64,000 bases of DNA, taken from positions 1,364,001 to 1,428,000 of the forward strand of contig JABTUA010000002.1 in assembly GCA_015075635.1 (NCBI GenBank), in the 5' to 3' direction. This document shows positions 29,282 to 40,972 of the stretch, piece by piece. Within the stretch, counting starts at the first letter, position 1; every line of letters begins with the position of its first letter. The stretch is from Polyangiaceae bacterium. GTDB taxonomy: Bacteria > Myxococcota_A > Polyangia > Polyangiales > Polyangiaceae. Under the pieces are notes generated by a model. It saw only the letters and a program-made list of their open reading frames with translations. It was not told the DNA's origin and searched no databases. Made by a program: the position numbers and the translations under genes.

Positions 29282-29569
29282 TCAGCGGCGCCGGCGCCGG
29301 AGCCCGATCGCCCCGACCGCAGCCGCCGCGAGCAGCGCCGGCCAGGAGCGGTCGCTCCCAGCGCCCGGCAGCGCGCAGCCGCAGCCGCCGCTCACCGCGT
29401 CGTCGTCGCCGGTCGCCGCCGGATCGACGAAGCCGAGCTCGCCCAGATCGCCGCTGGAGCAGGCCTCGCCCTTGTCGCCGAGGCCGGCCTTCTGGTCTGG
29501 GTTCACCACGGTCGGGCAGTTGTCCACCGCGTTGAACACGCCGTCGCCGTCCAGGTCGTCGTCGCAGGC
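29282..29569 (-). repeat. Left copy of a 288-base direct repeat
   Basis: It is identical at 281 of 288 positions to 39380-39667, in the same orientation and without gaps (constant offset 10,098). The similarity begins at the stop codon and ends inside a TSP3 repeat. Confidence 0.9.
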
Positions 29570-29617: not shown

Positions 29618-29635
29618 TGTCAGCACATGCCGACA
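29618..29635 (+). promoter_or_regulatory. 18-base palindromic operator, copy 1
   Basis: TGTCAGCACATGCCGACA ends 41 bases before the ATG at 29677. It is one of four near-identical oriented copies; the consensus is TGTCAGCA-NN-TGCCGACA. Confidence 0.75.
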
Positions 29636-29676
29636 TGCGGCTCGAGGTCGTTTGCCGTAGTCGTGGTTGGGCTCGC

Positions 29677-30096
29677 ATGGACCTCCGTGTTCGACCTCTG
29701 CTCACCGCGTGGCGGCGGGTGCTCATCGGGTTGCTCGCGATCGGGGCATTCGGCGGATGCTTCAATCCCTTCGGGCGACGGGGCGAGGGTGACGGCGAGG
29801 GGTCCGGCCCGCCCAGCTGCAAGAGCTCGTGCGAGCGTCTGAAGAAGAAGACCTGCCTGACGACGGATGTGCCCAAGTGCACGACGGAGTGCACCGGTCA
29901 CGAGGCGAAGGTCTCCGCTCTCGGGTGCGGCACCGAATGGGCCGCGCTGCTCGAGTGCTGCACTACCTGCGCGCACGGCGGGAACGACTGCACCTACGGG
30001 TTGGGCTGCGGCCCTCGCGAATTCTCGCCGTGCCGACATCCTTGCGGCGGGGAGTGGTCGGCGGTGGAACAGTGCGCCGGCCCCCTGGAGGACTGA
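29677..30096 (+). CDS. Cys-rich lipoprotein of the palindrome-controlled set
   Basis: A 139-residue predicted lipoprotein. The ATG at 29677 precedes a signal peptide ending IGAFGGC (Cys in CFNPFG). The mature part begins with a charged Gly/Glu stretch and continues with about 16 Cys in the pattern CKSSCERLKKKTC, CTTECTG, LLECCTTC, CTYGLGC, CRHPCGG, EQCAG. This is a small disulfide-rich domain of unknown function, similar in style to the lipoproteins at 9938 and 36017. It is the first gene of the block that shares the 18-base palindrome, which lies 41 bases upstream. The upstream region also overlaps the remnant at 29282. Confidence 0.75.
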   Translation: MDLRVRPLLTAWRRVLIGLLAIGAFGGCFNPFGRRGEGDGEGSGPPSCKSSCERLKKKTCLTTDVPKCTTECTGHEAKVSALGCGTEWAALLECCTTCAHGGNDCTYGLGCGPREFSPCRHPCGGEWSAVEQCAGPLED

Positions 30097-30118
30097 CGGA
30101 GCGGCTCGTCGATGAGAC

Positions 30119-30136
30119 TGTCAGCACCTGCCGACA
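30119..30136 (+). promoter_or_regulatory. 18-base palindromic operator, copy 2
   Basis: TGTCAGCACCTGCCGACA ends 35 bases before the ATG at 30172, in the same orientation relative to its gene as the other copies. It lies directly downstream of the previous gene's stop. Confidence 0.75.
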
Positions 30137-30171
30137 CGCCAAGCGCCCGTCGTCCGTGTTGACCTGATAGC

Positions 30172-31896
30172 ATGTCCAAGCGAGAGACTTGCGAGTCGGG
30201 TCGGTCGAGTCGGGGTGGTCTTCGGAGCAGGCGCTTTGCCGCAGTGTGGATGCCGCTGACCGGGCTCGCGCTCGCCTGTGGGAGCGCGACGACCGAGGAC
30301 TCGGCGACCTCGACCGAGCCACTCACGGCGAACCAGCAGGCCAAGCTCGTGCCCAACGACGGCGAGGCCAGCGACCGCTTCAGCTACGCGGCCGTGGACG
30401 TCGATGGTGACACGGCCATCGTCGGCGCGTGGGGAGACGACGACAAGGGATCGAACGCGGGGGCCGCCTACGTCTTCGTGAAGAACGGCGGCACCTGGTC
30501 GCAGCAGGCCAAGCTCACCGCGAGCGACGGCGGCGCCAACGACTACTTCGGCGTCGTGACGGCCGTCGAAGGGGACACGGCGATCGTCGGCGCCTACCAG
30601 GACGACAACTGGCAGGGCTCCGCCTACGTCTTCGTGCGCAACGGAACGACCTGGACGCAGCAGGCCAAGCTCACGGCGGGAGACCCCACGAACGGGGCGG
30701 AGTTCGGCTGCCGAGTCGGCATCTCCGGCGACACCGTGATCGTGGGCGCCCGCTGGCGTGCGCCGTCGGGCGCGGCCTACGTCTTCACGCGGAGCGGGAC
30801 GACCTGGTCGCAGCAAGCGAAGCTCACGTCGGATGCGACCGCCGGCGGCGGCGTGTCGGGCGGTGGGTTCGGCTGGTCCGTGGACGTCTCCGGCGACACG
30901 GCGCTGGTGAGCGCGTTCCAGGACGACATCACCGCGACGGACCAGGGGTCGCTGTTCGTCTTCACGCGAAGCGGCGCGACCTGGTCGCAGCAGGCGAAGC
31001 TGGTCGCGTCCGACGCCGGCGCCGGACACAAGCTGGGCTACTGGGTCGCGCTTCAGGGAAACACGGTTCTGGCCGGCGCTCCCTTCCACGGCTCGGGCAG
31101 AGGCGCGGGCTACGTGTTCTTCCGCTCGGGCACCGCGTGGTCGGAGCAAGGGAAGCTCCTGGCCGCGGACGGCGCGGCGGGGGACAACCTCGGCAACGCC
31201 GTGGCGGTTCACGGCGACGTCGCGATCCTCGGCGCCGAGGGCGACGACATCGGCACGAGCGCGAATCAGGGCAGCGCGTACCTCTTCACGCGCACCGGCA
31301 ACGCCTGGAGCGAGGCCGTGAAGCTCGCCGCGGCGGATGGGACCGGCGGCGACCAGTTCGGAAACGCGGTGTCCTTGTCCAACGGCGTGGCGCTCGCGGG
31401 CGCCTATCTGGACAACCCCAAGGGCTCCCAGAGCGGGTCGGCGTACGTCTTCGACTACACCAACGGCACCGGTGGCACCGGCGGCACTGGCGGCACGGCG
31501 ACGGGTGGCACCGGCGGCACCGCGACGGGTGGCACCGGCGGCACCGCGGCGGGTGGCACGGCCGGCGCGGGCGGCGCAGGAACCGGCGGCACTGCGGGCA
31601 GTGCCACGGGCGGTAGCGCGGGCGCATCCGGCGGTGGCGCTGGAGTTGCTGGCGCCGCGGGAGCTTCCGCAGGCAGCGGAGGCGGCGGAACCGGCGGCGC
31701 TGGAGTCGGAGGTGACGGCACGGGCGCAAGCGCAACGGGCGGCGCGGCCGGTCCGGGCGGCAGCGAGAGCTCGTCCGAGGACGAGGGCGGCTGCGGCTGC
31801 CGACTCTCCGGGCAAGGCGCGCCTTCGTCGCAGCTCTCGCTGCTCTTCGTCGCCGCGGGGGCGAGCCTCCTGCGACGCCGTCGGCGCGCGCGCTGA
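30172..31896 (+). CDS. FG-GAP repeat surface protein with MYXO-CTERM tail
   Basis: A 574-residue secreted protein. The N-terminus is a long signal peptide (n-region with several Arg, h-region LTGLALAC). Residues about 55-415 hold seven repeats of about 50 residues, each with a core like GDTAIVGAWGDD, GSAYVFVRNGTTW, QQAKLTA. These are FG-GAP/integrin-alpha-like units that should form a seven-bladed propeller. Many repeats keep an Asp-rich calcium-type loop. A Gly/Thr/Ala linker (about 425-530) leads to EDEGGCGCRLSGQG, a membrane helix and an Arg-rich end, the MYXO-CTERM signal. An adhesion or binding role on the cell surface is the best guess. Copy 2 of the palindrome stands 35 bases upstream. 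Confidence 0.88.
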   Translation: MSKRETCESGRSSRGGLRSRRFAAVWMPLTGLALACGSATTEDSATSTEPLTANQQAKLVPNDGEASDRFSYAAVDVDGDTAIVGAWGDDDKGSNAGAAYVFVKNGGTWSQQAKLTASDGGANDYFGVVTAVEGDTAIVGAYQDDNWQGSAYVFVRNGTTWTQQAKLTAGDPTNGAEFGCRVGISGDTVIVGARWRAPSGAAYVFTRSGTTWSQQAKLTSDATAGGGVSGGGFGWSVDVSGDTALVSAFQDDITATDQGSLFVFTRSGATWSQQAKLVASDAGAGHKLGYWVALQGNTVLAGAPFHGSGRGAGYVFFRSGTAWSEQGKLLAADGAAGDNLGNAVAVHGDVAILGAEGDDIGTSANQGSAYLFTRTGNAWSEAVKLAAADGTGGDQFGNAVSLSNGVALAGAYLDNPKGSQSGSAYVFDYTNGTGGTGGTGGTATGGTGGTATGGTGGTAAGGTAGAGGAGTGGTAGSATGGSAGASGGGAGVAGAAGASAGSGGGGTGGAGVGGDGTGASATGGAAGPGGSESSSEDEGGCGCRLSGQGAPSSQLSLLFVAAGASLLRRRRRAR

Positions 31897-32091
31897 CGAC
31901 GGGCGTGAGGTTCGTGCGCGCCGGGGCGCGGCGTCTCGCGCGTTGACGCACTACCGCGCTTTGGCCATGCGCCTCTCCCGTCGTGGCCCTCGTCGTCCAG
32001 AAGTTTGGCAGGGATGACGCGCATCGCGTTCAAAATCCCCCGCGGAAACTGACCCGGCCGGCGCCGCTGCGCACACCGGCTCGCGGGGGCG

Positions 32092-32109
32092 TGTCAGCAC
32101 ATGCTGACT
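32092..32109 (+). promoter_or_regulatory. 18-base palindromic operator, copy 3
   Basis: TGTCAGCACATGCTGACT ends 37 bases before the ATG at 32147. The rest of the 250-base gap (31897-32146) shows nothing else recognisable. Confidence 0.75.
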
Positions 32110-32146
32110 AGGCAATTCCTTCGGCGCAAGGCACGCTTGTCGGTTC

Positions 32147-33241
32147 ATGGGCCAACTCCATCTCCCCATCGGTGTCTGCCTCGCGCTCGCCGTGTCCGCC
32201 TCTGCAGTCGCTTCGGCGCAGACTCCGGCCGCGCCTCCTCCTCCTCCGGCGGCCGACGCTCCGCCGCCCGCTCCCGCGGTCCCGAGCTACCCGGCGCCGG
32301 GCCCGGCGACCAACAACTGGGACGTGCTGGTCACCGCCGACGGTCGAGTACTCTACGTGCGCGTCATGCGCCACGAGCCCGGCTCGTTCGTGACGTTCCG
32401 CCACAGCGATGGTCGCGAGGAAACCTGGGCTTGGGCCCAGGTCAAGGTGGTGGCGCTCGTGCCGGACCGCACCGGCTTGGTCACACCGGGGGCACCCGTG
32501 CCTCCGCCCACGAAGACGAGCCAGACCAACGTCGGCACGTCTGGCGTTCAGCACTCGACGGCTCGCGACTGCAGCACGCGTCCTGGCGAGCAGTGTCAGG
32601 AGCAAACGACGACGAACGTGGATGGCAGAGGCGTCAGCTTCGGGCTCCAGGGACAAAGCGTTCAACGTGTCGTCACGCCGCCCTCCTACGACATCGGCGG
32701 CGCAGTGGAGCTGGCCGGCCTGTACGGCACTGGCACCGGTGACATCGACGTGACCATCCTTGGCTACAATGTCCAAGGCGGGCTCCGCACCATGTTCGGC
32801 GGACAGTTCCCCGGGCCCGAGGGCGGCGGCTGGAGCGGCGTGGGGCTCGAGCTGATGGGCACCTTCGGCGGCGGCGCCGGGAAGATCGACGCTGCTGGAA
32901 CCGAGGTCGACTACGAGCAGGCGACCGTCTCGGCGAACGTCGGCGCGGGCTACCAGTACCTGAAGTTTGGCTCGATGGATCCCAAGACGCTGCAACAGGG
33001 CGGGTTCGGGTTGTTCTTGGGCTATCGCGTTGGAGCCGCTGCGAACTTCACGACGACGAAAGTCGGAGACAAAGAGACCACCAACGACGACACGAGCATG
33101 AGCCACGGACCCGTGCTGACGCTCAGCTTCCCCAAATACAATGCCGGAACGGCCAAGCTCCGGCGTTGGACCATCACGGCGATGGGCATGTACATCTCGG
33201 ACTTCCTGCTCGTGACCGTGGGCGGCGGTTACACGTGGTAG
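32147..33241 (+). CDS. Putative outer-membrane beta-barrel protein
   Basis: A 364-residue exported protein with a standard signal peptide (cleavage after ASAQ). A Pro/Ala linker (about 26-52) is followed by a short beta-rich domain (WDVLVTADGRVLYVRVMRHE, RHSDGREETWAWAQVKV). That segment resembles the small modules that precede barrels in several myxobacterial proteins. From about residue 180 to the end, alternating hydrophobic strands (YDIGGAVELAGLYGTGTG, ANVGAGYQYLKFG, FGLFLGYRVGAAANF, DFLLVTVGGGYTW) suggest a barrel that ends in an aromatic residue, as outer-membrane proteins do. Its stop overlaps the GTG start of the ZU5-like gene. Copy 3 of the palindrome lies 37 bases upstream, so both genes would be under its control. 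Confidence 0.75.
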   Translation: MGQLHLPIGVCLALAVSASAVASAQTPAAPPPPPAADAPPPAPAVPSYPAPGPATNNWDVLVTADGRVLYVRVMRHEPGSFVTFRHSDGREETWAWAQVKVVALVPDRTGLVTPGAPVPPPTKTSQTNVGTSGVQHSTARDCSTRPGEQCQEQTTTNVDGRGVSFGLQGQSVQRVVTPPSYDIGGAVELAGLYGTGTGDIDVTILGYNVQGGLRTMFGGQFPGPEGGGWSGVGLELMGTFGGGAGKIDAAGTEVDYEQATVSANVGAGYQYLKFGSMDPKTLQQGGFGLFLGYRVGAAANFTTTKVGDKETTNDDTSMSHGPVLTLSFPKYNAGTAKLRRWTITAMGMYISDFLLVTVGGGYTW

Positions 33242-34851
33242 GCCGCCAATCCCTCCGGCTCGTCCTTTGGTGCGCCCTGGCGGGCGCCGGCTGCGGCGAG
33301 AGTGACTCGCAAACGGACACGACGTCCGACGTCGCGCGCGCCACCATTGGTCCCACCGGCGGGCAGCTCGTGAGCAAGGACGGCGCGGTCACGTTGCACG
33401 TGCCTGCAGGTGCCCTCAGCCAAGACGTCGAGCTCGCCATCGCCCCCGCCAAGAGCACACCGACCGGCGGGCTGGGCAAGGCCTACGACTTCCTCCCCCA
33501 CGGCACGACCTTCGATCAGCCCGTCTCCCTCGTGTTCGACAACAACTACACGCCGGCTGCTGGCGTCACCGTTGGCGTGGGCATGGTGATAGACGGGCGT
33601 TGGGTGCCCGTGCCGACCTCCGGCCCGGACGCCAGCGGGCAGAAGGTCCTGGCGACGACGCAGCACTTTTCGAGCTACGGAGGCGTCGCGATGCCTGCCG
33701 CTACCGCCGCATGCAACGGTAGCAGCAAGGACCCGTGCCTGTGCGAAGAGGTCGCTTGGAAGACCTGCTGCCAGGCGCAGCAAGCCGGGAACCCCCTCTT
33801 TTCCGTGAGTGCCTGGACGTCGCCCACTGTTTGCGTCTGCTCCAACCCAAAGACTCTCAACGGCATCTTCGATTGCTACGAAGACAAGACCGGCAACGAC
33901 TTTGGCGGCTGCACACGTTGCGAACGCGACTGCTGCACCAAAGCCAAGGCATTCGCTTTCGCTTCCGACGGCGTGTGCGCCTGCAGCCTGCCGGCGGGGG
34001 ACACCTGTCTGCAGCAATGTGCCGCCCAGAACAAAGCCACCACCAAGTGTGAAGCGGCACACAAGGGCGGTGTCACGGCGCCCGAGTGTAGCGGCACGGG
34101 CGGAACCGGCGGCACGGGCGGAACCGGCGGCACGGGCGGAACCGGTGGCATGGGCGGCACGGGCGGAAGCGGTGGAGTTGGCGGCACCGGTGGCATGGGT
34201 GGCACGGGCGGCTCGGGCGGGAGCGCGGGCGCAGCCTCGGGCGGGAGCGCGGGCACAGCCTCGGGCGGGAGCGCGGGCACAGCCTCGGGCGGGAGCGCGG
34301 GCGCAGGTGGGGGCGCGGGCGCGGGTGGAACCGGCGGAAGCGGTGGATGCTCCCTGAGCTTCAGCGATGCCTTCACGACGAACCCGATCAACAACACGTG
34401 GCACGTCGCCGGCTCCGCGTTGCCCATCGGGATGTTCTCGGATTTGACGGTGACCTGGCAGCCACAGGGTCTGGCTACGCCCGGCCTGATGCGCATCTCG
34501 AGCGCGGGCAACGCAAACGCCGACGCACCAGCGACGTTCTTCCCGAGCACCAGCTTCGACGCCTCGGGCTGTGCGTCCGTGAAGGTCAGCTTCAACTACG
34601 TCTTGAGCGCCTTCGACACGGACGGCGGCGCGCCCGTGATCGCGACGGTACAGGTGTACGAAAAAACTACCGGTCAGGCCACGGAGGCGGCGACGCTGCA
34701 ACAGTCCGTGAACCTCACCCAGCGCGTGGTCGACCTGACCCCGTTTCTGCCGGCGTCCAAGGTCTTCGTTCTTCGCTTCTGGGCGGGTCACCCCGTGCCG
34801 ACCCAAGCCTTCTCCTTCGACGTCGACGACGTCGTGGTCTCCGGGAGCTGA
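33235..34851 (+). CDS. ZU5-like domain surface lipoprotein
   Basis: A 538-residue predicted lipoprotein. The GTG at 33235 overlaps the end of the previous gene and precedes the signal LRLVLWCALAGAGC. A ZU5-like module follows (about 35-150): ATIGPTGGQLVSKDGAVTLH, VPAGALSQDVELAI and HGTTFDQPVSLVF. This domain is known from ankyrins and netrin receptors and occurs in bacterial surface proteins. A Cys-rich stretch (about 165-290: CLCEEVAWKTCCQ, CTRCERDCC, CLQQC) and a long Gly/Thr then Gly/Ser/Ala linker lead to a C-terminal beta domain (SFSDAFTTNPINNTWHVAGS onward) resembling galactose-binding-like folds. It is coupled to the barrel gene and shares its promoter. Binding or adhesion is likely; no catalytic site is seen. 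Confidence 0.8.
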   Translation: MVGRQSLRLVLWCALAGAGCGESDSQTDTTSDVARATIGPTGGQLVSKDGAVTLHVPAGALSQDVELAIAPAKSTPTGGLGKAYDFLPHGTTFDQPVSLVFDNNYTPAAGVTVGVGMVIDGRWVPVPTSGPDASGQKVLATTQHFSSYGGVAMPAATAACNGSSKDPCLCEEVAWKTCCQAQQAGNPLFSVSAWTSPTVCVCSNPKTLNGIFDCYEDKTGNDFGGCTRCERDCCTKAKAFAFASDGVCACSLPAGDTCLQQCAAQNKATTKCEAAHKGGVTAPECSGTGGTGGTGGTGGTGGTGGMGGTGGSGGVGGTGGMGGTGGSGGSAGAASGGSAGTASGGSAGTASGGSAGAGGGAGAGGTGGSGGCSLSFSDAFTTNPINNTWHVAGSALPIGMFSDLTVTWQPQGLATPGLMRISSAGNANADAPATFFPSTSFDASGCASVKVSFNYVLSAFDTDGGAPVIATVQVYEKTTGQATEAATLQQSVNLTQRVVDLTPFLPASKVFVLRFWAGHPVPTQAFSFDVDDVVVSGS

Positions 34852-34918
34852 TCACTCACCGTTCCGCGGCGGGTCCCAGGGGGCCTGATCGCCATCATTT
34901 CCGGACCGGGTCGGCCCC

Positions 34919-34948
34919 GCGCAATCTGTTGCGCTCGAATGAGCGCAA
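34919..34948. promoter_or_regulatory. Overlapping palindromes across the LuxR-type start codon
   Basis: TTGCGCTCGAATGAGCGCAA (34929-34948) has perfect 8-base arms and a 4-base centre that contains the A of the start codon at 34939. A further GCGCAA (34919-34924) pairs with the TTGCGC at 34929-34934. This could be an autoregulatory operator or an RNA hairpin that hides the ribosome start. Confidence 0.55.
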
Positions 34949-35991
34949 GTTCCGCCGTAGCCGCCCTGCTTCGGGACCTCGGTCCCGGGCTCGAGGCGCT
35001 TCCGTGGAGCTCGCCGGGCGAGGCGATGGCTTCCTTGCCTGCGTCGCGGCGCGCCGCCTTGCGGCAGTTCACGCGGCAGCTGGGCGAGTCCTGGCTCTCG
35101 CCACGACCGGAGCGGGAGCTTCTCCGCCGGCTCGAGCGGGCTGCGCCAGGCAACATGGTCGGCGTGCACCCGGGGCCAGCCCCTGACAGCCTCCCTTGGT
35201 TGGTCCACACGCGCGGCATGGGCAAGGCCGAGGGCGACCCGATCGAGAATCAACACTTGATCGCCGCGACCTGTCTGTACGACCCGACGCGCCGCGACGC
35301 GTTTTCGGACCGTCCCGTGGCACTGGCCCCGCTCATTCGTCGAACGCCGGTGAACATCGACCCGCTGAGCCTCGTGGACGGCGTCCTGCACCCCAATCGG
35401 CTGTTCCACCAGCTCAGGATGGTGCTCTACCAGAGCGGACGCGTGCGGCTCTTCGTGGGACTCTACCGCGAGCGTGTCAGCGAGCGCTTCGACGAAGGAG
35501 ACCACGCCGCGATGCTCGCCTTGCGCCCAGCCCTTGCGGAGTGGGTTCGCGTCGCGCGTGCCATCGGACTCGCGCCCCTCGGCGATGGCGCGCTGGTCAC
35601 CGCGCTCGGGGCCATCGACCAGCCGGCTCTCTTGCTGAGGCGTGGCAGGGTCGTCTTCGCCAATGCCCTCGGGGAGCGCTGGGTCGGGCGCGTGAAGGAG
35701 TGGGCACGCACGTCACCTCGCGACTCGCGCTTCGCTTCGACCGTACGTTTGTGTCCCAGCGGGTTGGACGTGGAGCTCGTGCTGGTGCGCGCGGAGCGAG
35801 CATGGGATTTTACGGCTCGCCTGACCCCCGCCCTCGTACCCGTGGCCGAGGCCATGGCCGAGGGCTTGTCGGACAAGGAGGTCGCGGACCGGCTACGCCT
35901 GCCCCTGCGCACCGCACGCACGTACGCGCAGCGTGTGCTCGCGCGTCTGCAGATCAGCGACCGGCGGGAGCTCATTCGGCGTCAGCGCTGA
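34939..35991 (+). CDS. LuxR-type transcriptional regulator
   Basis: A 350-residue DNA-binding protein. The C-terminus (about 288-350) is a LuxR/NarL helix-turn-helix: LTPALVPVAEAMAEGLSDKE, VADRLRLPLRTARTYAQRV, LARLQISDRREL, in the usual order. The N-terminal 280 residues are not a receiver domain. A middle part (about 110-220) reads like a GAF-type sensor (RLFHQLRMVLYQSGRVRLFVGL) and the segment near 230-285 (QPALLLRRGRVVFANALGE) like a PAS core. It is therefore probably a ligand-responsive regulator. It lies among the genes carrying the 18-base palindrome and is the best local candidate to bind it. It does not carry that palindrome itself but has its own over its start. Confidence 0.85.
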   Translation: MSASSAVAALLRDLGPGLEALPWSSPGEAMASLPASRRAALRQFTRQLGESWLSPRPERELLRRLERAAPGNMVGVHPGPAPDSLPWLVHTRGMGKAEGDPIENQHLIAATCLYDPTRRDAFSDRPVALAPLIRRTPVNIDPLSLVDGVLHPNRLFHQLRMVLYQSGRVRLFVGLYRERVSERFDEGDHAAMLALRPALAEWVRVARAIGLAPLGDGALVTALGAIDQPALLLRRGRVVFANALGERWVGRVKEWARTSPRDSRFASTVRLCPSGLDVELVLVRAERAWDFTARLTPALVPVAEAMAEGLSDKEVADRLRLPLRTARTYAQRVLARLQISDRRELIRRQR

Positions 35992-36016
35992 GGCGAGCCA
36001 GCGCGGGGTGCTGCCC

Positions 36017-36289
36017 TCACAGGCACGAGCACTCCGGGTCTCCGGCGTCACAGCGACAAAGGCCGGAGCCCGCGGCAGCACCGCCGTCCTGCGCGTTTCC
36101 CCGTTCCCGTTCGCGCTGCCTGTGCTCGCGCTCGGCCTGGTCGCGTCGCTGCTGGGTGTCCACGAGCCCTTCGGGAGGCCCCGAACAGCGTTCGCAGCCC
36201 GCGAGACCCGCCGCGCCCGACAAGATCAGCACCACGGCGCCGATTCGGCTGCGGTTCCGCGCTGTCCCGCCGTGAGCGACCCTCGGCAT
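36017..36289 (-). CDS. Small lipoprotein coupled to the Sel1-repeat gene
   Basis: A 90-residue gene whose ATG (36289) overlaps the TGA stop of the Sel1-repeat gene as TGATG, so it is probably translated by coupling. The signal peptide runs IGAVVLILSGAAGLAGC (lipobox LAGC). The mature part has a charged helical segment (QQRRDQAEREHRQRERERGN) and a short Cys-rich tail (LCRCDAGDPECSCL). The same tail style is seen in other lipoproteins of the window. It has no recognised family. Its coupling to the large gene suggests a shared envelope function. It converges with the LuxR-type gene (25 bases between stops). Confidence 0.7.
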   Translation of the reverse strand: MPRVAHGGTARNRSRIGAVVLILSGAAGLAGCERCSGPPEGLVDTQQRRDQAEREHRQRERERGNAQDGGAAAGSGLCRCDAGDPECSCL

Positions 36290-38916
36290 CAGCGCTTGCG
36301 CGCCTCGAGGGTCGCCGCGCAGTCTTTGGGGTCCGCTCCAAGACTGCACGCGAGCTCTACGTACTTGACGCTCTGAGCGCGGTCCTTGGACCCGCCCCAC
36401 GCATTCCAGTAGGCGTCCGCGAGGCCCCAACAAGCGTTGTGGTGCTTGGCCCCACAGCCCTGCTTCCACAGCTTCCGCGCCAGCTTTCCGTCGGCCTTCA
36501 ACCCCTGGGTCCCCTTGGCGAGCTTGTAGGCGAGCTGCGTGCAGCGCTCGTTGTCTTTGCAGATGTCGTCCAGCCACTCGAGCCTGCAGTTCCAAAAGTT
36601 CGAGGAACTCGCTTCCACCAGGCAGCGCTCCTTGCGCAAGGACTCGGTACGCGCGCTGTCCTTGGGCAACGAAGGGCTACGCTCGTAGAGGCTCGCCAGG
36701 GCTGCGCAACCTTCCGCGTATTTTGCCTTGCAGGCTCGGTCGTAGAAGTCCGCCGCCACGAGGTCGCTTTTCGGCGTGCCACGACCGTCCTGCGCCGTCG
36801 CGCCGGCCAGATGGCAGCTCGCGCCATCCGAATTCTCGCAGCCGATGGTCGCGAAAGCCACGCGACGTTCCTTGTCGGGATGGCGTCGGGCCAGGTAGGA
36901 GCAGGCCAGACGCGCGTAGCCGAGGGTGCAAGACTTTTCGAGCGCCGCCAGCCCTCTTTTCTCGTCGCGCCGAGCTGCGAGAATACCCTCGAAGTAGCGG
37001 ATGCCGGCGTTGTAGCAGCCGGCGCGGTCACCGAGCTCGCAGGCCTTGTCGTAGAGGTCCCGGACCTGGGCCGGGTCGTGTCCAGCAGTATGCGCGAGCA
37101 GGAATCCCTGGTCCTGACAGCCGCGGCCACTGTCGAGCGAGCAGGCTTTCTTCGCGAGCTCGAGCGCGCGCTGCGGGTCTTTGGGCACGGCTCGCCCGAG
37201 CTGAAACGAGAGTCCGAGCTCCGCACAGCCCTCGCCCACGTCGCGCTGACAAGCCGCTTCCAGGATCGCGTTGCCCTGGACTTCGTTTTTGGCCACGTGG
37301 GTCCCGGAAAAGTGGAGCGAGGCCAAATCGCTGCACGACCCTCCGTGGCCGTCGTCACAGGCCGTCTTCAGGTACTGGAGCCCGCGGCTCACGTCCTGCA
37401 CGACTCCGCTTCCCTTGAAGTGCGCCCACGCGAGTTGGCGACAGGCGTTGTTGCCGACCGTGTCGCGCCCTCCGTCGCAGGTCCGGCGGTAGAGCGCCGC
37501 CGCCTTGCCGGGGTCCTGAGGCACCTCGAGGCCTCCCGCGTACATGTAGGCCAGCTCGAGGCAACCCTTGCTCTGACCCGCGTCGCAGCTCTTCTGAAAG
37601 AGCTCGAGGGCCTTCGCTACGTTCTTCGGAGCTCCGCTGCCGTGCTTCAGCTTGGCGCCCCAATTGGCGCAGGAGTACGCGAACCCGCCGGAACAGGCCC
37701 GCTCGAAGAGCTCCACGGCCTTCTCCTGCTCGCCTCGATCTTCGTAGCGAACGGCCAGGTTGTTGCACCCGCGCATTTCTCCGGCCTTGCACGCCGCGTC
37801 TTGGAGCGCGAAGTCGCGGTCGAGATCCTTCGGCAGGCCGGCCTCGCCGCGGGAGTACATGATCCCGAGGCCACTACAGGCGTACTGAACGTTCTTCGCG
37901 CACGCTTGCTCGTAGAGGGCTCGGGCACGCGCAACATCCTTGGCGACTCCGAAGTAGGCGTAGTGAAGGGCGTAGCCGTAGTAGCCGCAGCTCGCCAGAT
38001 CCCCCTTGTCGCACTCGGCGCGGCACTCGGCCGGCTTCGCCGGGTTGCAGACGTAGCCGGTCGAAGCTCGACGGTGTGTGCATTTGCCGGCGACCGGCAC
38101 CAGGCCCTCGGGGCACTCGGTCACGACGGCGTCGTCGGCTCCAGTCTGAGCAGCGTCGAGCGCGACGAGCTCCAGGCGCAGTGCCGATCCGCATCGAGCC
38201 GGCGGCTTCCCCGACTCGACAGATAGCCCCTTGCATGCGCTCGCCTCACCGTCCTTCATCGTGCGCTCGCTGCTCGCGCTCCTGAGCCCGCTCGCGCCGG
38301 CGCCGAAGACTTCCACGGCGCCGGCGATCCGACCCTGCTGCCCGCGCTTGACGGCGAAGGCTCCGAGATACGCACCTCGCACGAAATGCGTCGCCCGCTG
38401 ACACTCCGGGTCGGTTCCCAGAGCGCTCCGGGCGACACTGGGGGTCACTGCTCGGCGCTTGCCGACGGTCGTGAACGCCAAGTCCAGCGCCGAGCCGCGC
38501 TGGAGCTCCGCGGAGATCTTCGCCCCGAAGGCCGGCAAGTTGGCGCGGATCTCGTCGGCGTCGCTCAGCTGCAGCACGTCCTCTTTGGGCTCGACGCCGA
38601 CGTAGCCGTAGCTGCCGGACGCGGCGCAGCCCCGGATCAGCTCCAGGTTCTTGCAGTCGTAGCGCACGAGGGCGAGGCCGTCCTCGGCCATGGCGACCTC
38701 GAGGTCCGCCCGCTCGTGGGAGGTCCAGTCCATCACGAGCGGGGTCGCGCGCTGGGGCACCACTCGGCAACTGCCTTCGCCCAGCGACTCCGCCAGGCCC
38801 TGCTCGGCGCTCGCTTTGCCGAGGCCTGGCTTGCCACGGTAGCAACCAGTAGCGCCCAAGGTGAGTGCTAGGGCAAACGGAAGGGCGATGGACAGCAGAC
38901 GAAATGTGGATGGCAT
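36289..38916 (-). CDS. Cys-rich Sel1-like repeat protein
   Basis: An 875-residue lipoprotein-like exported protein. The ATG at 38916 has GGAGG upstream and a signal peptide ending LGATGC. An N-terminal beta-rich domain (about 30-270) of unknown type comes first. A short Cys strip (CPEGLVPVAGKC, AECRAEC) is then followed by about 15 Sel1-like repeats to the end. Each repeat is about 36 residues with a pair of Cys (GCNNLAVRYEDRGEQEKAVE, ALELFQKSCDAGQSKGCLEL, GVVQDVSRGLQYLKTACDDG). This is the arrangement of the HcpA-type Cys-rich SLR proteins. Such solenoids bind other proteins. Copy 4 of the palindrome lies 36 bases upstream. Confidence 0.9.
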   Translation of the reverse strand: MPSTFRLLSIALPFALALTLGATGCYRGKPGLGKASAEQGLAESLGEGSCRVVPQRATPLVMDWTSHERADLEVAMAEDGLALVRYDCKNLELIRGCAASGSYGYVGVEPKEDVLQLSDADEIRANLPAFGAKISAELQRGSALDLAFTTVGKRRAVTPSVARSALGTDPECQRATHFVRGAYLGAFAVKRGQQGRIAGAVEVFGAGASGLRSASSERTMKDGEASACKGLSVESGKPPARCGSALRLELVALDAAQTGADDAVVTECPEGLVPVAGKCTHRRASTGYVCNPAKPAECRAECDKGDLASCGYYGYALHYAYFGVAKDVARARALYEQACAKNVQYACSGLGIMYSRGEAGLPKDLDRDFALQDAACKAGEMRGCNNLAVRYEDRGEQEKAVELFERACSGGFAYSCANWGAKLKHGSGAPKNVAKALELFQKSCDAGQSKGCLELAYMYAGGLEVPQDPGKAAALYRRTCDGGRDTVGNNACRQLAWAHFKGSGVVQDVSRGLQYLKTACDDGHGGSCSDLASLHFSGTHVAKNEVQGNAILEAACQRDVGEGCAELGLSFQLGRAVPKDPQRALELAKKACSLDSGRGCQDQGFLLAHTAGHDPAQVRDLYDKACELGDRAGCYNAGIRYFEGILAARRDEKRGLAALEKSCTLGYARLACSYLARRHPDKERRVAFATIGCENSDGASCHLAGATAQDGRGTPKSDLVAADFYDRACKAKYAEGCAALASLYERSPSLPKDSARTESLRKERCLVEASSSNFWNCRLEWLDDICKDNERCTQLAYKLAKGTQGLKADGKLARKLWKQGCGAKHHNACWGLADAYWNAWGGSKDRAQSVKYVELACSLGADPKDCAATLEARKR

Positions 38917-38952
38917 GCCCTCCAGGATCACCGCTGGCAGGCAGGCGGCGCA

Positions 38953-38970
38953 TGTCGGCACATGCTGACA
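38953..38970 (-). promoter_or_regulatory. 18-base palindromic operator, copy 4
   Basis: Read on the minus strand it is TGTCAGCATGTGCCGACA, 36 bases before the ATG at 38916. The 5' arm TGTCAGCA is identical in all four copies and three of four share the 3' arm TGCCGACA. Confidence 0.75.
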
Positions 38971-39379: not shown

Positions 39380-39667
39380 TCACCGGCGCCGGCGCCGGAG
39401 CCCGATCGCCCCGACTGCTGCCGCCGCGAGCAGCGCCGGCCAGGAGCGGTCGCTCCCACCGCCCGGCAGCGCGCAGCCGCAGCCGCCGCTCACCGCGTCG
39501 TCGTCACCGGTCGCCGCCGGATCGACGAAGCCGAGCTCGCCCAGATCGCCGCTGGAGCAGGCCTCGCCCTTGTCGCCGAGGCCGGCCTTCTGGTCCGGGT
39601 TCACCACCGTCGGGCAGTTGTCCACCGCGTTGAACACGCCGTCGCCGTCCAGGTCGTCGTCGCAGGC
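39380..39667 (-). repeat. Right copy of the 288-base direct repeat
   Basis: This is the 3' end of the intact NlpC/P60-like gene; the partner copy is 29282-29569. Together they bound the block containing all four 18-base palindromes. Confidence 0.9.
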
Positions 39668-40972
39668 GTCGCCGACGCCGTCTTCGTCCGAGTCTTCCTG
39701 GCTCTCGTGGGCGAGGTCGGGGCAGTTGTCGCTGCCGTTCGGCGTGCCGTCGCCGTCCAGGTCGTCGTCGCAAGCGTCGCCGATCCCGTCGCCGTCGGCG
39801 TCGGTCTGGGTCGCGTCGGCGACCTCGGGGCAGACGTCCGTCGCGTCGAGCACTCCGTCACCGTCGTCGTCGTCGTCGCAGGCGTCGCCGCTGCCGTCTC
39901 CGTCGGCGTCGGCCTGGTCCGCGTTGGCGTCCGTCGGACAGTTGTCCTCTGCGTCGGTGATGCCGTCGCCGTCGTCGTCCGCCTCGCAGGCGTCGCCCTT
40001 GCCGTCCTTGTCCGTATCGGTCTGCGCGGTGTTCTTCACCAGCGGGCAGTTGTCCTTGGCGTCGGGGATGGTGTCCGCGTCGTCGTCGTCGTCGCAGGCG
40101 TCGCCTTTGCCGTCCTTGTCCGTGTCCAGCTGGCTCTTGTTGGCGACGGTGGGGCAGTTGTCCTTGGTGTCGAGGATCGTGTCCCCGTCGTCGTCCGTGT
40201 CACAGGCGTCGCCCTTGCCGTCCTTGTCCGTGTCGGTCTGCGCGGTGTTCTTCACCAGCGGGCAGTTGTCCTTGGTGTCGAGGATCGTGTCCCCGTCGTC
40301 GTCCGTGTCGCAGGCGTCGCCCTTGCCGTCCTTGTCCGTGTCCAGCTGGCTGGTGTTCTTGTTGGACGGGCAGTTGTCCTTCGAGTCGGCGATGCCGTCG
40401 CCGTCCTTGTCGGGGAAGTCCTGGACGTTGTCGCGCCGGATGGCCTTGTAGCTCGAGCTGATGCTGCGACCGCCGCGCACGCAGCCGTACGAGCAGCCCT
40501 TGCACTCGATGGCGGTGACCCAGCCCCAGGGGTCGCCGCTCTCGTACAGGAAGATGTGGCCCGCGCCGTTGGTGTTGTAGACGAACGAGTCGGCCTTCTT
40601 GGCGCTGCCGCGCGAAATCGTGCTCCAGTGGTAGCTGTTGTTGTCGAAGTGGTAAGTCGAATACGGGTGCGAGTCCGTCGTCACGGCGATGGCGCTCGGG
40701 ACCTGCCAGGCCTTGGCGACGAAGCCGGAGCAGTCCGCGCCGTAGGACCCGGAGTGCGAGCAGCCCGGGCAGCTGCCGGAGCACGAGCCGTAGGCGGTGG
40801 AGGTCGTGCTCCAGCGGCCGTGGCCCCACCAGTACGAGAACTTCACCACGCCCTTGCCGCGCGTGATGATCTCGTCTCGGGTCATGGCGGGCGGCGCGGC
40901 CAGCGCCGGCAGCGCTACACAGAGGCCCGCACCGACCAGCGCGAAGCGCAAGAGCGAGTCGAAGCGGCTCAT
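39380..40972 (-). CDS. NlpC/P60-like cell-wall hydrolase with TSP3 repeats and MYXO-CTERM tail
   Basis: A 530-residue secreted protein. The ATG at 40972 overlaps the stop of the propeller gene (ATGA). The signal peptide is cleaved after ALAA. Residues about 30-175 match a papain-like NlpC/P60 or amidase fold, with DCSGFV (Cys81), GHIFLY (His139) and IEC (Glu156) as the likely catalytic triad. This family cleaves gamma-D-Glu-diaminopimelate or related bonds in peptidoglycan. Eight TSP3 calcium-binding repeats follow (DxDxDGxxDxxDNCP). The tail GGCGCALPGGG, a membrane helix and RRRRR form the MYXO-CTERM signal. Its last 288 bases are duplicated at 29282. The upstream operator array matches that of the SpoIID/M15 operon. 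Confidence 0.87.
   Translation of the reverse strand: MSRFDSLLRFALVGAGLCVALPALAAPPAMTRDEIITRGKGVVKFSYWWGHGRWSTTSTAYGSCSGSCPGCSHSGSYGADCSGFVAKAWQVPSAIAVTTDSHPYSTYHFDNNSYHWSTISRGSAKKADSFVYNTNGAGHIFLYESGDPWGWVTAIECKGCSYGCVRGGRSISSSYKAIRRDNVQDFPDKDGDGIADSKDNCPSNKNTSQLDTDKDGKGDACDTDDDGDTILDTKDNCPLVKNTAQTDTDKDGKGDACDTDDDGDTILDTKDNCPTVANKSQLDTDKDGKGDACDDDDDADTIPDAKDNCPLVKNTAQTDTDKDGKGDACEADDDGDGITDAEDNCPTDANADQADADGDGSGDACDDDDDGDGVLDATDVCPEVADATQTDADGDGIGDACDDDLDGDGTPNGSDNCPDLAHESQEDSDEDGVGDACDDDLDGDGVFNAVDNCPTVVNPDQKAGLGDKGEACSSGDLGELGFVDPAATGDDDAVSGGCGCALPGGGSDRSWPALLAAAAVGAIGLRRRRR

What the first reader, a model, noticed from the sequence alone, without database searches (positions are those of the whole stretch)
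29618..38970. Four oriented copies of TGTCAGCA-NN-TGCCGACA at a fixed distance before start codons
Copies at 29618-29635, 30119-30136, 32092-32109 and 38953-38970 end 41, 35, 37 and 36 bases before the ATGs at 29677, 30172, 32147 and 38916. The 5' arm is identical in all four and the 3' arm differs only in the third copy. The fourth serves a minus-strand gene and is turned accordingly. This defines a local regulon of surface proteins: Cys-rich lipoprotein, FG-GAP protein, barrel plus ZU5 lipoprotein, and Sel1-repeat protein plus small lipoprotein. The LuxR-type protein at 34939 is the nearest candidate regulator.
Basis: partly seen in the sequence, partly recalled or inferred. Interest (0 to 1): 0.88.

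Follow-up and report, generated by a model that had tools for sequence, protein, structure and literature searches.

The report
Palindromic activator-type sites for surface-protein genes
Four near-identical DNA palindromes, found nowhere else in this myxobacterium-like genome, sit at the promoters of exported-protein genes around a LuxR-type regulator gene, and the same site lies in front of equivalent genes in two sister species, so this is a real, genus-specific control switch of a familiar kind.

Summary
Across 9.47 Mb the motif occurs only here: three exact 18-mers plus the variant third copy. The 18-mer is absent from 97 other genomes of the family.

It is a promoter element, not a repeat. 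In two sister species the core GTCAGCA-NN-TGCYGAC lies before orthologous barrel, Cys-rich and lipoprotein genes, usually 36-38 bp before the start codon. Across the genus a TA-bearing -10-like hexamer starts 23-24 bp after the core (9 of 13 sites; 0 of 20,000 shuffles). That places the palindrome near -43, a class II activator position. The -10 is weak in three of the four window copies.

The 7-2-7 geometry fits GerE/NarL-type DNA-binding domains. Sister genome G055 supports the LuxR-type protein: of its ten relaxed sites, five lie beside paralogs of it. Against it, sister species G013 keeps at least five sites but has no detectable homolog of the LuxR-type protein.

The regulon is well supported; the LuxR-type protein as its regulator is likely but unproven. 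"Local" holds for this genome only, because most sites in the sisters are scattered. New member of a known kind.

The parts
29618..29635 (+). operator-like palindrome copy 1, TGTCAGCA-CA-TGCCGACA, 41 bp before ATG 29677
29658..29663 (+). candidate -10 element TAGTCG of copy 1 (the only window copy with TA in the genus-wide register)
   Evidence: inferred
29677..30096 (+). Cys-rich lipoprotein gene (lipobox ..GAFGGC), target 1; no Pfam match
30119..30136 (+). palindrome copy 2, TGTCAGCA-CC-TGCCGACA, 35 bp before ATG 30172
30172..31896 (+). FG-GAP-repeat exported protein with MYXO-CTERM tail, target 2
32092..32109 (+). palindrome copy 3, TGTCAGCA-CA-TGCTGACT, 37 bp before ATG 32147
32147..33241 (+). 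barrel-like exported protein, target 3; orthologs in two sister species carry the same site
33166..34851 (+). ZU5-like Cys-rich lipoprotein (open frame; true start probably near 33240-33290), probably co-transcribed with the barrel-like gene; homologs in sister species carry their own site
34939..35991 (+). LuxR-type regulator: C-terminal GerE domain (residues 301-347), N-terminal part without family match; 87 bp after the ZU5 lipoprotein gene on the same strand; candidate regulator, possibly in the copy-3 operon
36017..36289 (-). small lipoprotein gene directly downstream of the Sel1 gene
36289..38916 (-). Sel1-repeat lipoprotein (lipobox ..LGATGC), target 4
38953..38970 (-). palindrome copy 4, TGTCAGCA-TG-TGCCGACA on the minus strand, 36 bp before ATG 38916

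Best explanation
The palindromes are operators of class II-type, activator-dependent promoters. A dimer with a GerE/NarL-type helix-turn-helix binds the inverted heptamers GTCAGCA-NN-TGCYGAC centred near -43. There it stands in for a -35 element and recruits RNA polymerase to a weak -10 (TACGGT-like) placed a few bases before the start codon, so the mRNA has almost no leader. This switches on four exported-protein transcription units as one group. The most likely binder in this genome is the LuxR-type protein encoded at 34939, itself probably in the copy-3 operon and so self-activating. Shown: the sites, their exclusivity, their conservation before orthologs, the in-register -10 across the genus, and paralogous regulators beside variant sites in a sister genome. 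Inferred: binding, activation rather than repression, transcription start, operon structure, and the identity of the regulator.
For: Genome-wide exclusivity. Conservation 38 bp before the barrel orthologs of both sister species, before the ortholog pairs G055 C135/G013 C65 and G055 C170/G013 C271, and before the ZU5 gene of G013. TA in the -10 register at 9 of 13 sites, 0 of 20,000 shuffles. A profile of palindrome plus -10 gives hits with E below 0.01 only in the three genomes of the genus among 60 of the family. GerE domain in the candidate, closest solved relatives LiaR/VraR/DesR/DevR/NarL-type domains; 7-2-7 inverted heptamers are the stated NarP/NarL arrangement (PMC7380067). In G055, 5 of the 10 relaxed sites in the genome lie beside two of its four LuxR-type paralogs; the chance of two or more of seven places falling so is about 0.0005-0.002. 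One of those sites is about 33 bp before the predicted start of a paralog itself. The C54 locus of G055 also carries a ZU5 lipoprotein 45% identical to the window's and a Sel1-like fragment.
Against: Species G013 (98% complete) has at least five sites, several at the same orthologous promoters as in G055, but no homolog of the LuxR-type protein at E <= 1e-10. Three LuxR-type loci (G055 C205, G055 C45, G060 C21) have no close site nearby; C45 has only a weak variant. In the window only copy 1 has TA in the -10 register, and a sigma-70 consensus scan finds no promoter. The nature of the sensor part is not established: Pfam gives only GerE and the single-sequence model is poor.
Confidence: 0.57

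Rival explanations
1. Same regulon, but the regulator is another transcription factor conserved across the genus and encoded elsewhere; the LuxR-type protein at 34939 is only a neighbour, or shares a subset of sites.
For: G013 keeps the sites and lacks the LuxR-type family. In the sister species the sites with the TGCTGAC arm are unlinked to it. NarL-type response regulators stand next to sites in G055:C60 and G013:C195.
Against: Those two response regulators differ from each other in the recognition helix, and the C60 one is cut to about 26 codons in G013. Five of ten relaxed sites in G055 lie next to paralogs of the LuxR-type protein.
Confidence: 0.33
2. The palindromes are operators of a repressor: a dimer bound over the -35 region blocks RNA polymerase.
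For: A palindrome over the -35 region is equally usual for repressors (general knowledge); no binding data exist.
Against: The weak -10 elements and the absence of a recognisable -35, together with the constant distance between palindrome and -10, fit an activator that contacts polymerase.
Confidence: 0.15
3. The palindromes form an RNA hairpin at the 5' end of the mRNAs (attenuator or stability element).
For: An inverted repeat can pair as RNA; copy 3 folds better than shuffles (z -2.3).
Against: Copies 1, 2 and 4 have an A.C mismatch in the stem and fold no better than shuffles (z -0.07, -0.69, -0.16); changes in the proximal arm (T, C or A) are not compensated in the distal arm; the palindrome lies upstream of the inferred transcription start.
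Confidence: 0.03
4. The copies are a dispersed repeat or a by-product of duplication, without regulatory function.
For: The cluster lies between 285-bp direct repeats.
Against: No other copies in 9.47 Mb; flanking sequence is not shared between copies; position relative to start codons and -10 is conserved at orthologous promoters in other species.
Confidence: 0.03

Closest known systems
NarL/NarP-type (FixJ/NarL family, GerE domain) operators: inverted heptamers with 2-bp spacing
   Same: 7-2-7 inverted repeat; a GerE-domain protein is encoded in the locus
   Different: Different heptamer (GTCAGCA); the candidate has no receiver domain and its N-terminal part matches no family
Quorum-sensing LuxR with lux box (class II promoters)
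   Same: 18-bp palindrome at about -43, apparently in place of a -35 element; LuxR-type DNA-binding domain
   Different: No autoinducer-binding domain detected in the candidate and no LuxI-type synthase noticed nearby; different sequence
Myxococcus xanthus MrpC sites (TGTYN8RAC, CRP family) and FruA sites (GGGYRN4-6YGGG), PMC4320627
   Same: Myxobacterial palindromic promoter elements; the outer TGTC/GACA resembles MrpC half-sites
   Different: Spacing N10, not N8; only four sites per genome, not hundreds; no GGG half-sites

Membership tests
NarL/GerE-type operator | two inverted heptamers separated by 2 bp | tested here: met
   GTCAGCA-NN-TGCYGAC; 11 of the 16 core columns invariant in 13 sites
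NarL/GerE-type operator | a GerE-domain protein that binds the site | not testable with these tools
   A GerE protein is encoded in the locus; binding needs an experiment
NarL/GerE-type operator | the regulator family present wherever the site is present | tested here: not met
   G013 has the sites but no homolog of 34939; it has other NarL-type regulators
Class II activator promoter | operator at a fixed distance from a -10, near -42 | tested here: met
   TA at 23-24 bp after the core in 9 of 13 genus sites, 0 of 20,000 shuffles; only 1 of 4 window copies taken alone
Class II activator promoter | mapped transcription start and dependence on the activator | not testable with these tools
   needs 5'-end mapping and mutants
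Quorum-sensing LuxR | autoinducer-binding domain | tested here: not met
   only GerE and other helix-turn-helix models match the six homologs, plus weak single matches
MrpC (CRP-like) site | TGTYN8RAC spacing | tested here: not met
   spacing here is N10
dispersed DNA repeat | many copies unrelated to promoters | tested here: not met
   4 copies in 9.47 Mb, all before start codons

The most novel reading that the evidence does not exclude
A genus-specific family of LuxR-type solos with an undescribed sensor part each runs a private, partly self-contained surface-protein module. Site variants (TGCCGAC arm here, TGCAGAC arm at the C54 and C132 loci of G055) diverge together with paralogous regulators, so that duplicated modules become insulated from one another.
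Probability: 0.3. Interest if true: 0.6.

Novelty: new member of a known kind. Interest (0 to 1): 0.45.

Why it matters
It gives an operator consensus, a promoter architecture and a defined target list for a small surface-protein regulon in a myxobacterium-like genus for which I know of no described regulon. Because sister species differ in whether sites are clustered and in whether the LuxR-type protein is present, it is a compact case for how a regulon is gathered, scattered or rewired. It also links under one control several exported protein families (ZU5-like lipoprotein, barrel-like protein, Cys-rich MYXO-CTERM-like protein) that have no known function.

Tried and rejected
De novo palindrome clustering around LuxR-type paralogs: swamped by GC-rich sequence. 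NarL-type response regulator at G055:C60 as genus-wide regulator: no close ortholog in this genome (39% best) and truncated in G013. RNA hairpin: rejected. MrpC and FruA sites: rejected. Literature search for the heptamers: only unrelated primers and constructs among those listed. No plasmid record holds the regulator.

Full report
OBSERVATION. The four copies are present exactly as described: coordinates, orientation, arm identities and gaps of 41, 35, 37 and 36 bp to the ATGs. In the 9.47-Mb genome there are three exact 18-mers plus the variant third copy and nothing else within two mismatches; three-mismatch hits are as frequent as those of the reversed pattern. None of 97 other family genomes holds TGTCRGCANNTGCYGACA.

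CONSERVATION IN THE GENUS. The relaxed core GTCRGCANNTGCYGAC has 6 places in this genome, 5 in G013 and 4 in G055, the two other sampled members of the genus; 57 further family genomes have 4 in all, at control level. The barrel-like gene (window 32147) has homologs at 68-70% identity in G055 and G013; both carry the core 38 bp (measured from the 18-mer) before the start codon. Two further ortholog pairs share the site: G055 C135 with G013 C65 (Cys-rich MYXO-CTERM-like proteins) and G055 C170 with G013 C271 (lipoproteins; in C271 the likely start lies about 56 bp after the site and the frame is broken in the assembly). In the C135/C65 pair the spacer has diverged while the palindrome and the following TACGGTCG are kept. 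The ZU5-like lipoprotein (window, up to 34851) has strong homologs only in G055:C54 (46%) and G013:C195 (48%) among 184 genomes of the order, both with a palindrome upstream.

PROMOTER ARCHITECTURE. In 13 oriented sites of the genus a TA dinucleotide starts 23-24 bases after the core in 9; none of 20,000 within-site shuffles reaches this, and other offsets have few or none. The hexamers are TACGGT, TACGTT, TAGTAT, TAGGGT and similar. If these are -10 elements, the palindrome centre is at about -43, and the start codon, 36-39 bases after the core in most cases, is within a few bases of the transcription start. This is the class II activator position (general knowledge, not tested). In the window only copy 1 has the TA; copies 2-4 have weaker sequences, so the claim rests on the genus set. 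A sequence profile of palindrome, spacer and -10 gives hits with E below 0.01 only in the three genomes of the genus among 60 of the family, and no new site in this genome. Caveats: one spacer base was removed in six of the 13 training rows to bring the two spacing classes into register, and the training sites match by construction.

CANDIDATE REGULATOR. The protein at 34939 has a C-terminal GerE domain; its closest solved relatives are LiaR-, DesR-, VraR-, DevR- and NarL-type domains. Inverted heptamers with 2-bp spacing are the NarP/NarL arrangement (PMC7380067). No autoinducer-binding domain was detected; the N-terminal 300 residues have no curated family match above cut-off. The gene follows the ZU5 lipoprotein gene by 87 bp on the same strand, so it may belong to the copy-3 operon (inferred).

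INDEPENDENT TEST IN G055. This genome has four homologs of the regulator at E <= 1e-10. Of its ten places with GTCNGCANNTGCNGAC (reversed control: 0), four lie about 2.8-5.5 kb from the C54 homolog and one about 33 bp before the predicted start of the C132 homolog. Counting places rather than copies, two of seven fall within 5-10 kb of a homolog; chance is about 0.0005-0.002. The C54 locus carries a ZU5 lipoprotein 45% identical to the window's, a Sel1-like fragment (46 residues, 46% identity, E 7e-6) and a lipoprotein-like start with the site 36 bases before it, interrupted by a transposase gene. Sites at C54 and C132 share a variant proximal arm, TGCAGAC, against TGCCGAC in the window. The C45 homolog stands near a protein with local similarity to the barrel-like protein (35% over 71 residues) and a weaker palindrome, GTCCGCA-TT-TGAAGAC, about 41 bp before it.

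COUNTER-EVIDENCE. G013 is estimated 98% complete and has no homolog of the regulator at E <= 1e-10 with a single sequence or a six-member profile, yet holds six places of the relaxed core plus the ZU5 site. Either its copy lies in an assembly gap or another factor binds there. NarL-type response regulators occur beside sites at G055:C60 and G013:C195, but they differ from each other and the C60 one is truncated in G013. I therefore put about 0.57 on the full statement with 34939 as regulator and about 0.33 on the same regulon with another regulator.

ALTERNATIVES. MrpC sites have 8-bp spacing (PMC4320627); here it is 10. An RNA hairpin is disfavoured by stem mismatches, unexceptional energies and position. 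A repeat without function is disfavoured by conservation at orthologous promoters. A repressor operator cannot be excluded.

CONTEXT. The cluster lies between two direct repeats of about 285 bp, 97.6% identical, 10,098 bp apart. The right copy is the 3' end of an intact TSP3-repeat gene on the minus strand (ending at 39380); the left copy is a detached 3' fragment. Integration of a unit by recombination, or a segmental duplication, would leave this pattern and could explain how the regulon members came together; not tested further. Taxonomy is inferred: the MYXO-CTERM match and large genomes suggest a Polyangiales-like myxobacterium.

VERDICT. A real, genus-restricted operator-promoter element of a known kind, in front of exported-protein genes; the LuxR-type regulator is probable, not proven.

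Noticed in passing
29286-29569 and 39384-39667: A direct repeat of about 285 bp, 97.6% identical with sharp ends, flanks the whole cluster; the left copy is a detached 3' fragment of the TSP3-repeat gene at the right, suggesting that the 10-kb unit was inserted or duplicated as a block.
   Followed up: partly
39504-40451: Seven in-register 108-bp repeats encode thrombospondin type 3-like repeats in the flanking gene.
   Followed up: no
L161 1501-2532 (G000:C1:2263302): A second copy of the barrel-like exported protein, 70% identical, lies elsewhere in this genome and has no palindrome upstream.
   Followed up: partly
L207 14955-16741: In G055:C54 a lipoprotein-like gene start with the variant palindrome is interrupted by a transposase gene, followed by a Sel1-like remnant.
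   Followed up: partly
L207 10217-13731, L208 10042-14242, L210 10901-12993: Alpha/beta-hydrolase-like genes lie within a few kb of three LuxR-type homologs and an acyl-CoA-ligase-like gene follows one of them; this hints at an acyl-type ligand, but the genes were assigned by eye only.
   Followed up: no
L186 about 4260 onwards (G013:C68): The NarL-type response regulator divergent from the barrel-like gene in G055 is cut to about 26 codons in G013, by deletion or misassembly.
   Followed up: no
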